This document shows positions 13,285 to 62,745 of a stretch of DNA of 64,000 nucleotides, piece by piece (the stretch's first letter is position 1; the number at the start of each line of letters is the position of its first letter). The stretch comes from an uncultured Bacteroides sp. GTDB lineage: Bacteria > Bacteroidota > Bacteroidia > Bacteroidales > Bacteroidaceae. Location of the stretch: contig CAMWGU010000004.1 of the NCBI GenBank assembly GCA_947173895.1, positions 1 to 64,000 on the forward strand. The letters run 5' to 3'. The notes below the pieces were generated by a model, which saw nothing but the letters and a program-made list of their open reading frames with translations, did no database searches and had not been told where the DNA came from. The translations under genes and the position numbers were made by a program.

Positions 13285-13446
13285 TTTAAATGAAAAATTA
13301 AGAATTAAAAATTAAAAGTTAATTCGTTAATCAGTTTGGGAAATTATCAGAGTAGATATACGCATCAAGGAAGAAAGTCAATGTGTTTTAGCATTTTTTT
13401 CTGTGGTTGCAAGCTACTCAAATCTCTCCACTGTTTTTAACGGTCG

Positions 13447-21054: not shown

Positions 21055-21596
21055 TACACAATAAGGAAACATTATAATAATACACACCGGATCAGCAAAT
21101 ATTTTCGGTTGGCAACATTACGTCAGTCCGATATAATCATAGGAACATCGCAACCGATGGTATCTGTATTCCCAAGTCTTTTTGCTTCTTGACTAAGAGC
21201 CTTCGCCTGCCGAAACCAACACATTATTATTGTATTCCGGCCCTACATTGTCCGAAAACAACATTTTCTTGCATGGCTACCCCTTCAAATAATCCACAGT
21301 ATTGACGTGACTCTACTTTTCCTTTCATCCTTTCATTAGTTGCCGAAACGCCCTGTTGATGGGGATTCCGAGAGTGAAATGACACTCCGTCGGGTCCTTT
21401 CAGCCTCCTTTCATCGGCACATGCAGTGAAACCGCTGAAGGCAGATGTGTGAAAGGATTCATACCGGTGGCTGAAAGGGTCGTGAGGGGATGTACTGTCA
21501 TTTTTAACCGGTTGATTGATAGACGGTTTTACTAAAAATGAAAGGATGAAGGGAGAAGGAGAAGAAGCAACCTGATGAGGGGATGATGTACTTTGC

Positions 21597-21684
21597 ACGT
21601 ACGTACGTATGAGCCTATACATACGTATGTGTAAGCCTATACGTACGTATGTACAAGCCCACACATACGTACGTGTTTTTACGA
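21597..21684 (+). repeat. 22-bp array, type 1, four units (copy A)
   Basis: Exactly four 22-base units at 21597, 21619, 21641 and 21663. Each has a palindromic ACGTACGT or ATACGTAT core in its first half, and the first three have an AGCC-containing second half. The period equals about two helical turns. Confidence 0.85.
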
Positions 21685-21702
21685 CAAGGCGAAATGTGTT
21701 GC

Positions 21703-21813
21703 GGCGCACAGGACAGGTCTGTGCAGTGAACAAGCCGGGCTTGTACGGCGAACAGGGCATGCTCGTGCGGCGAACAAGCATGCCTTGTTCCGGTGAACGA
21801 GCATGCCCTGTTC
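21703..21813 (+). repeat. 22-bp array, type 2, five units (copy A)
   Basis: Units start at 21703, 21725, 21747, 21769 and 21791; four are 22 bases and the last is 23. The core is a dyad of the form GAACAAGC/GCTTGT (for example ACAAGCCGGGCTTGT at 21730-21744). It starts exactly 106 bases after the type 1 array, as in copy C. Confidence 0.8.
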
Positions 21814-45424: not shown

Positions 45425-45557
45425 AGGGAGGCAGCCAAATGGAGCAAATCCGAGTGCAAAATATTAATGAATTTGCCACAAAATATTACGAATTTTTTAC
45501 TACATAGAATCACGGAATTTGGCACAAGGTATATGCAAGCTTGTGTATCGAAACATG

Positions 45558-45645
45558 GCCGGCTTGTACATACGTATGTGTAGCCTTGTACATACGTACG
45601 TGTAGGCTTATACATACGTACGTATAGACTTATACGTACTATCGT
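45558..45645 (-). repeat. 22-bp array, type 1, four units (copy B)
   Basis: Units at 45558, 45580, 45602 and 45624, each 22 bases, with TACGTACGT/ATACGTAT cores on the minus strand. Same unit count and period as in copies A and C; the distal unit is the most degenerate. Confidence 0.8.
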
Positions 45646-45977
45646 GTATTCCGATGCCTGTTCAAGAGCAGATAGCATACCCCTAATCAAGTCGGTTTTT
45701 CGTCTTTCCCCTTCACCCTTTCATTTCTGATAAATCTTATTATAAATCAGCATATTAAAACTGAAACAACATCCTTTCATTACCCTTTCAGCCACACCGC
45801 CCAAGTCCTTTCACATCTGTCTTCAGCGGTTTCCGCCATGCCGCTTTTGTTCGCAGACAAAAGGACGATGAAAGGAGGATGAAAGGACCGTACGGAGTGT
45901 AACTTCACTACCGGATCTCCCGTCAACAGGACGTTTCAACGACTGATGAAAGGATGAAGGGAGAAGCTGAATCATGT
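45558..45977 (-). repeat. Dispersed intergenic repeat, copy B (inverted)
   Basis: The reverse complement aligns with copies A and C: the TGAAAGGA-rich part (about 45720-45977, for example the block around GAAACGTCCTGTTGACGGG) and the four-unit 22-bp array (45558-45645). The second array is missing or too decayed to see. It fills most of the 712-base gap 45324-46035. Confidence 0.8.
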
Positions 45978-61869: not shown

Positions 61870-62236
61870 GAGCCTGTTTACATCCTTTTGCATAGTTGTC
61901 CCTTCACATAGGATACAGCATTGATGTGATTCTGCTTTTTCCCTTTCTCCTTTCACCATCCGCCGAAACGCCCTGCCGATGGGGATTCCGAGGGTGAAAG
62001 GACACTCCGCCGGGTCCTTTCATTCTCCTTTCATCCTCCCTTCATCGGCACACAAAGGCAGCATGGTGTGAAACCGCCGAGGGCAGATGTGAAAGGACTC
62101 ATGCTGGTGGCTGAAAGGGTCGTGAGGGGATGTACTTTCATTTTTAACCAACTGATTGATAGGTGGTTTGCTAAAAAATGAAAGGATGAAGGGAGAAGGA
62201 GAAGAAGCAACCTGATGAGGGGATAATATGCTCTGC

Positions 62237-62324
62237 ACGTACGTACGTGTAGGCCTATACATACGTATGCGTAAGCTTATACGTACGTATGTACAAGCCC
62301 ACACATACGTACGTGTTTTTACAA
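62237..62324 (+). repeat. 22-bp array, type 1, four units (copy C)
   Basis: Units at 62237, 62259, 62281 and 62303. The third unit is identical to the third unit of copy A; the others differ by a few bases, all keeping the TACGTA core. Confidence 0.85.
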
Positions 62325-62342: not shown

Positions 62343-62452
62343 GGTGTACATGCAGGTTTGTACAATGAACAAGCCAAGTTTGTGCAACGAACAAGCTAAG
62401 CTTGTACGGCAAACAGGACATGCTTGTGCAGCGAACAAGCATGCCTTGTTCC
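62343..62452 (+). repeat. 22-bp array, type 2, five units (copy C)
   Basis: Five exact 22-base units at 62343, 62365, 62387, 62409 and 62431 with dyad cores such as ACAAGCTAAGCTTGT (62391-62405). Different sequence from the type 1 array but the same period. Confidence 0.82.
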
Positions 62453-62493: not shown

Positions 62494-62527
62494 CTTGACA
62501 AACGCTTTTTGATGTTGTATATTTGCA
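62494..62527 (+). promoter_or_regulatory. Promoter module at the end of repeat copy C
   Basis: CTTG (62494-62497), a 20-base spacer and TATATTTG (62518-62525), 26 bases before the ATG of the 64-codon ORF. Nearly identical over 34 bases to the GH88 promoter (45391-45424, minus). Confidence 0.75.
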
Positions 62528-62550
62528 GAACGATCCTTAAAACATCCTCT

Positions 62551-62745
62551 ATGAATGTATATTCTCTACGCTCAAAACCGTTTTCTTCGGAAGTAAAGTC
62601 TTGTCGCGTTGAACGAATGAAGGCGGCTCATCCTTCGGCTATGCGCGGCATGACCGCCTACAGCCTGAGCCGCATCCTGCCCCAGCTAGGCGAACGGGTG
62701 CATACGTCCAAGGGGAATGTGTATCGGGTGGTGGCAATTAAATAA
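62551..62745 (+). CDS. Dispersed 64-codon ORF of unknown role
   Basis: Begins MNVYSLRSKPFSSEV and includes MKAAHPSAMRGMTAYSLSRI; a truncated copy lies at 1-60. It is basic, with no signal or membrane helix. It has a good promoter and lies between repeat copy C and a beta-helix gene. It could be a real small protein, a leader of the downstream gene, or just part of a repeat. I do not recognise a family. Confidence 0.45.
   Translation: MNVYSLRSKPFSSEVKSCRVERMKAAHPSAMRGMTAYSLSRILPQLGERVHTSKGNVYRVVAIK

What the first reader, a model, noticed from the sequence alone, without database searches (positions are those of the whole stretch)
21597..21813. Two adjacent 22-bp arrays with different dyad cores inside a dispersed repeat
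Copy A (21597-21684 and 21703-21813) and copy C (62237-62324 and 62343-62452) each have four units with a TACGTA core, then five units with a GAACAAGC/GCTTGT dyad core, all of period 22 and with the same 106-base offset. Copy B (45558-45645, inverted) has the four-unit array. A fixed unit number, a period of about two helical turns and palindromic cores look like an iteron set for two DNA-binding proteins on one face of the helix. This is not a CRISPR: there are no constant repeats with unique spacers. I know of no described element with this layout.
Basis: seen in the sequence. Interest (0 to 1): 0.85.

Follow-up and report, generated by a model that had tools for sequence, protein, structure and literature searches.

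The report
Iteron-like arrays of a helicase gene
The repeats are scattered copies of a fixed block of four helix-phased palindromes that also sits in front of a helicase-type gene in several related gut bacteria, which suggests a little-noticed family of mobile DNA parts that probably work as that protein's binding sites.

Summary
The arrays are real: three in the window, 102 called in the genome. The TACGTA array is a fixed block: 77 of 102 are exactly 88 bp (4 x 22), and 57 of 102 stand alone. The GAACAAGC array is not fixed (0-7 units). The iteron idea gains support outside the coordinates. In the same genome the same order (TIR module, TACGTA array, GAACAAGC-type array, promoter) precedes an intact 552-aa VapE-like/DUF3874 gene; window copy C keeps that promoter and an internally deleted copy of the gene. 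Across Phocaeicola, 22 of 27 vapE-like genes have a 22-bp array within 350 bp upstream, against 17 of 368 other genes; in 10 of 21 the last dyad lies 153-177 bp before the ATG. The protein's closest solved structure is PriRep1; its C-terminal domain is predicted to be a winged helix. Two other species groups hold dispersed 4 x 22 families with different cores. Best reading: iteron-type sites of a vapE unit plus solo, non-autonomous copies. Binding, replication and dispersal are inferred.

The parts
21316..21559 (+). Copy A: module M, about 244 bp, with terminal inverted repeats (left 21316-21339, right 21534-21559) and internal CCTTTCATCC-type repeats
   Evidence: ends read by eye; homologous modules in P. 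faecalis and upstream of the full-length vapE-like gene at C108
21592..21679 (+). Copy A: array 1, four TACGTA dyads, period 22
21706..21813 (+). Copy A: array 2, about five units of GAACAAGC/GCTTGT dyads (four by the caller plus a degenerate first unit by eye), one step of 23
45563..45650 (-). Copy B: array 1, four dyads (inverted)
45535..45569 (-). Copy B: remnants of array 2
   Evidence: by eye
45696..45967 (-). Copy B: module M (inverted)
   Evidence: by eye; TRF 11-bp repeat at 45860-45888
61935..62199 (+). Copy C: module M
   Evidence: right end also by motif
62232..62319 (+). Copy C: array 1, four dyads
62343..62452 (+). Copy C: array 2 (three units by the caller, about five by eye)
62495..62532 (+). 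Copy C: promoter-like stretch TTGACA..TATATTTG, as in front of the intact vapE-like gene at C108:6750
   Evidence: the promoter reading rests on recalled Bacteroides -33/-7 motifs
62551..62745 (+). Copy C: 64-aa open frame, first residues plus the C-terminal DUF3874 piece of the vapE-like gene (internally deleted copy)
   Evidence: (PF12990, E 4.5e-14, profile positions 31-71)

Best explanation
The arrays are iteron-type binding-site arrays that belong to a VapE-like/DUF3874 gene, a relative of PriRep1 and of the SaPI5 primase-helicase. The intact unit is [TIR module +] array(s) of 22-bp dyads - promoter - vapE-like gene. The window copies are non-autonomous derivatives: A and B keep the upstream module and arrays, C also keeps the promoter and an internally deleted gene. 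Besides these, the 88-bp four-dyad block is scattered alone. How it would work: the protein (or a partner) binds each dyad as a dimer; 22-bp spacing puts four dimers on one face of the helix, commonly 153-177 bp before the start codon, so that binding can regulate the promoter and/or load the helicase at the array. SHOWN: order of parts, association with vapE-like genes, unit number and period of array 1, and one vapE+array unit at different sites in two species. PREDICTED by model: helicase fold and C-terminal winged helix. INFERRED: DNA binding by this protein, origin or operator function, and the way solo copies spread.
Confidence: 0.6

Rival explanations
1. REPtron-like system: the vapE-like gene and its array act as a master, and the protein itself disperses the 88-bp solo arrays, as RAYT transposases are thought to do with REPs.
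For: Solo arrays in high copy, species-specific, of the same core type as vapE-linked arrays in the own genome and in P. vulgatus. Before rpoN the own genome has an array that its nearest congeners lack: G046, G002 and G015 run from the upstream gene into the rpoN leader, while G041, G010 and G019 have other sequence there.
Against: No known helicase of this family is recalled to cut or join DNA. No target duplication stands out (k=5: 13 of 42 vs 9.1 expected, k=6: 4 vs 2.3, k=7: 1 vs 0.4, none at 8-10). No vapE-like gene with an exact copy of the own standalone array was found, and none was seen in the held G059 loci.
Confidence: 0.25
2. Passive MITE/BIME-like mosaic repeats: TIR module and minisatellite moved by an unrelated transposase, dyads without a protein partner, like BrickBuilt.
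For: Module M has inverted ends; intergenic location; BrickBuilt precedent (PMC4596501).
Against: Array 1 mostly keeps four units and 22-bp steps although copies differ (33 standalone arrays 86% identical on average), and the same 4 x 22 plan recurs with an unrelated core; the vapE association is unexplained.
Confidence: 0.25
3. RNA-level elements: bidirectional terminators or transcript-stabilising hairpins.
For: Array ends AAAACAC..GTGTTTT; four stretches folded on both strands beat their shuffles (z -3.7 to -11.0); between convergent genes the median distance to a gene 3' end is 94 bp.
Against: 12 of 50 non-M-linked arrays with both neighbours lie between divergent genes (only 11 background gaps, so the comparison has no power). 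G-U versus A-C mismatches show no clear strand preference. In G059 the centre pair is non-complementary in 49 of 56 units. Linkers of the own arrays repeat directly rather than as complements (by eye).
Confidence: 0.15
4. Chromosome-wide binding sites of a nucleoid or regulatory protein unrelated to vapE.
For: About 100 sites, fixed phasing, mixed gene contexts.
Against: Copy number runs from about 100 to five or sixteen places in congeners, and cores change; the own rpoN array is missing in the nearest congeners.
Confidence: 0.12

Closest known systems
SaPI / PICI replication module (PriRep1, SaPI5 primase-helicase, ori iterons)
   Same: helicase-type gene of the same fold beside tandem repeats; a C-terminal DNA-binding domain is expected
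   Different: array upstream, not downstream; 22-bp dyads in fours; no int, xis or packaging genes noticed (not searched for); many solo arrays in the genome
BrickBuilt and MITE464/PgRS of Porphyromonas gingivalis
   Same: Bacteroidales, intergenic, MITE with a 23-nt (or 41-nt) minisatellite and TIRs
   Different: unit number 1-22.8 in BrickBuilt versus mostly four; 'vape' does not occur in that paper's main text
REP/BIME elements with RAYT (REPtrons)
   Same: dispersed extragenic palindromes and a master gene carrying the same repeats
   Different: no Y1 transposase found in the own genome; helicase-type gene; 4 x 22 phased array
BOX elements of Streptococcus pneumoniae
   Same: modular, dispersed, dyad-rich intergenic repeats (recalled; only the search listing was seen)
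   Different: not linked to a helicase gene as far as recalled; other unit lengths
Tn7 end arrays of 22-bp TnsB sites (recalled)
   Same: 22-bp sites in threes and fours
   Different: transposon ends, not palindromic; no Tn7 genes were looked for here

Membership tests
Iteron arrays of SaPI/P4-type initiator helicases | tandem repeats next to the initiator gene | tested here: met
   22 of 27 vapE-like genes vs 17 of 368 controls
Iteron arrays of SaPI/P4-type initiator helicases | gene encodes a VapE/D5-type helicase | tested here: met
   PF05272; 7pds by sequence and fold; Walker A variant noted
Iteron arrays of SaPI/P4-type initiator helicases | C-terminal dsDNA-binding domain | tested here: inconclusive
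   predicted winged helix only
Iteron arrays of SaPI/P4-type initiator helicases | origin directly downstream of rep (SaPI) | tested here: not met
   arrays lie upstream; so not filed as a SaPI-type origin
Iteron arrays of SaPI/P4-type initiator helicases | protein binds repeats and drives replication | not testable with these tools
   needs EMSA and a replication assay
BrickBuilt-type MITE | terminal inverted repeats | tested here: met
   module M; not tested for the standalone arrays
BrickBuilt-type MITE | variable number of direct repeats | tested here: not met
   array 1: 77 of 102 exactly 88 bp; array 2 does vary
BrickBuilt-type MITE | target site duplication | tested here: inconclusive
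   standalone arrays only: 13 of 42 at k=5 vs 9.1 expected; module M not tested
REP/RAYT | Y1/RAYT transposase in the genome | tested here: not met
   PF01797 0 matches in the own genome, control rings in 5 of 14; assembly 94.8% complete
REP/RAYT | high-copy dispersed extragenic palindromes | tested here: met
CRISPR | constant repeats with unique spacers | tested here: not met
   linkers are short and alike
Known Rfam RNA | match over gathering score at the arrays | tested here: not met
   the only match in the window is SAM-II elsewhere

The most novel reading that the evidence does not exclude
Bacteroidales genomes carry a REPtron-like system in which a self-loading helicase (VapE-DUF3874), not a transposase, owns and disperses a four-dyad, two-turn-phased DNA block. 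The block's architecture (4 x 22 bp) is conserved while its sequence is replaced from species to species, so protein and sites co-evolve.
Probability: 0.25. Interest if true: 0.88.

Novelty: new variant of a known kind. Interest (0 to 1): 0.72.

Why it matters
It gives a handle on an apparently unnamed class of intergenic DNA in gut Bacteroidales: an excess of period-22 arrays in the species sampled, a candidate owner gene, and a predicted DNA-binding domain for a family of unknown function (DUF3874). It makes a testable claim about how non-coding arrays spread with a fixed unit number, and offers a Bacteroidota counterpart to REP/RAYT and to SaPI-type origins.

Tried and rejected
RAYT link: PF01797 absent. 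Target duplications around standalone arrays: not clearly above chance. Flank homology of 33 standalone arrays: mean identity 0.557/0.553 against 0.549 for distant control stretches, although flanks chosen by a guessed motif show weak X/Y motifs (that choice is circular). Terminator role by gene context: the background had only 11 gaps, no power. Array polarity with transcription: 11 of 16 in one sense, p 0.21. RNA versus DNA by G-U/A-C counts: G059 8:3 and P. vulgatus clade 8:4 (pairs 1-5) lean to G-U; the own family is mixed and dominated by shared ancestry. Nested long-hairpin selection: judged by eye from centre dinucleotides, not supported. Named genomes: exact unit-3 signature 0 in genome contigs and end motif 0 in viral contigs; own or near records may be left out. 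Phages: no match. Plasmid collection: 19 records, all P. massiliensis; the G059 array has none. First dyad detector too strict, replaced by tandem identity plus dyad. NCBIfam gave no family for the 552-aa protein. Papers: the ten searches showed in their listings no description of these arrays or of a vapE link; only listings were seen except for the papers named in the report, and most subscription journals are not held. The iteron sequence of phage P4 was searched for, not found, and is not used.

Full report
WHAT IS THERE. The three TACGTA arrays are real and in register: four 18-bp dyads with 4-nt linkers, period 22, in copies A, B and C; five tandem stretches at >=60% identity in the window against none in 100 Markov-1 simulations. 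A and C also have array 2. Upstream lies a module M with inverted ends and 11-bp internal repeats.

HOW MANY. In the own genome (3.26 Mb, 143 contigs) the array end motif occurs 70+74 times at <=3 mismatches, control 0. With a slightly wider motif at <=2 mismatches the own genome has 58+64 and 6 of 148 other genomes (60 of the 148 in the same genus) have one or two. I fetched and merged 103 segments (290 kb) round listed hits; the tool listed only 100 of the 144 hits, so counts are lower bounds, and copy B itself was missed by the motif. After merging split chains there are 102 arrays: 57 not linked to M and 45 linked. Exactly 88 bp: 42 of 57 and 35 of 45. Standalone arrays are 86% identical on average over 88 bp (33 arrays, 528 pairs), while 45-bp flanks are at the level of control stretches, so the 88-bp block behaves as a unit of its own. 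Most standalone arrays keep one odd unit (GGTCGCGAAGG half). Array 2 in M-linked copies has 0-7 units.

LINK TO A GENE. Copy C goes on into a promoter-like stretch and a 64-aa frame whose end is DUF3874. The own genome has 17 PF12990 matches, 15 over the cut-off. At C108 the gene is intact (552 aa); upstream come M, a TACGTA array of about seven units, a GAACAAGC-type array (by eye), the promoter and the ATG. So the dispersed repeat of the finding is the upstream region of a vapE-like gene, with or without a deleted gene. The N-terminal 220 aa found relatives in 10 of 59 other congeners. All 11 remote-type genes examined (frames of 409-475 aa, one of 265) have a 22-bp array upstream, with four dyads on a 22-bp lattice, weakest in one. 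Overall 22 of 27 genes pass at the 56% cut-off and 25 of 27 at 52%, against 17 of 368 controls at 56%. The 27 share ancestry. They leave out genes cut by contig ends and six further hits, of which three have an array.

MOBILITY. P. vulgatus (L435) and G019 (L442) copies align at 85.8% over 1571 bp, from about 70 bp before the array to the stop codon. Apart from the inverted self-match of the array, the only other shared piece is 107 bp of the gene's end lying 1.1 kb further on in L442, so the sites differ. Against this, P. vulgatus and G041 share flanks, and one neighbour gene recurs in three of the 12 loci, so several copies are inherited in place. At the rpoN spacer the own genome has an array with flanks of about 200 bp in all. 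G046, G002 and G015 go from the upstream gene straight into the rpoN leader; G041, G010 and G019 have other sequence there; G059 and G029 have 22-bp arrays with other cores at the same spacer.

GENERALITY. G059 has its own dispersed family at 16 places, with no match in four other genomes. Of 15 distinct arrays with three or more units in the held loci, 14 have four units and one has seven; all 48 steps are 22 bp (a 42-bp match on C19 was not held). The P. vulgatus clade has another family, five places each in G010, G041 and G046, none in the own genome or G019: 7 arrays with four and 6 with five units by a permissive caller, 44 of 45 steps 22 bp. A sequence-blind scan of non-coding DNA (about 340 kb, seven Bacteroidales samples) finds 37 tandem stretches at period 22, 16 at 21, 7 at 23, 1 at 20, 2 at 19. 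Short periods are also common (25 at 12, 31 at 14), where the same cut-off compares fewer bases. E. coli K-12 (47 kb non-coding) has none from 19 to 40. 12 of 37 period-22 arrays pass a column-permutation test for dyads, against 9 of 113 at other periods (21 and 33 left aside). The E. coli control is small, and much of the sample centres on queA and rpoN loci.

MECHANISM. Shown: anatomy, association, phasing, copy families. Inferred: a dimeric DNA-binding domain, most simply DUF3874, sits on four same-face dyads ahead of its own promoter, as iterons or operators. PMC7581432 (passages) reports SaPI Rep and Cch2 reading repeats with the C-terminal domain; PMC6092414 (passages) describes iteron sets at PICI origins; PMC7145576 (passages) describes semi-palindromic iterons of RepA_N initiators. 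Solo arrays would be to this gene what REPs are to RAYTs (PMC3733652, passages). None of 46 solo arrays of four or more units shows vapE remnants, so how they spread is open.

COMPARISON AND VERDICT. The nearest described element is BrickBuilt (abstract, section 7 part 1, section 8 and passages read). It lacks the fixed number, and its main text does not mention VapE. I file this as a new variant: iteron-like arrays of a vapE unit with dispersed solo copies.

Noticed in passing
window 13378-13437 (-): SAM-II riboswitch (Rfam RF01726, 62.4 bits).
   Followed up: no
L048, L049, L054 and other standalone arrays: The third unit keeps a non-palindromic half (TACACATACGGTCGCGAAGG) in most standalone arrays, giving the block a polarity; in a few the second unit is its mirror image, making a palindrome of about 40 bp.
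   Followed up: partly
flanks of standalone arrays: Weak conserved motifs X (AGCCGTGTCCGCAGGCATGAAA) and Y (TCGACGC..GTACGGGTGTTTTTT), Y resembling a decayed fifth unit.
   Followed up: partly
L226, L233, L237, L243 (P. faecalis): Between M and the TACGTA array sits a different 21-22-bp array (AAAAACATACCGAGCTTTTT), so arrays with different cores are stacked in another order.
   Followed up: partly
window 45860-45888, 62015-62046: 11-bp repeats (AAAGGACGATG / TCCTTTCATCC), half the 22-bp period, inside module M.
   Followed up: no
C5:67848-67869 (L111): A single dyad CGAAAAACACGTACGTACGTGTTTTTCG between two convergent genes, 34 and 37 bp from their ends; looks like a bidirectional terminator.
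   Followed up: no
downstream of hppK in L150, L158, L159, L164, L170, L171, L175: Seven of the 80 queA loci carry 22-bp tandem stretches with unrelated units downstream of hppK, the neighbour of window copy A (in L171 the stretch overlaps a called frame).
   Followed up: partly
alignment A2: The Walker A stretch of the VapE-like proteins reads QGxCKST in the consensus, cysteine where glycine is usual.
   Followed up: no
PLSDB records OY725981-OY726067: All 19 'plasmid' records matching the element are P. massiliensis, mostly unannotated; they may be chromosomal contigs.
   Followed up: no
L333 (G059 C63:19): One expanded array of seven units beside fourteen of four.
   Followed up: no
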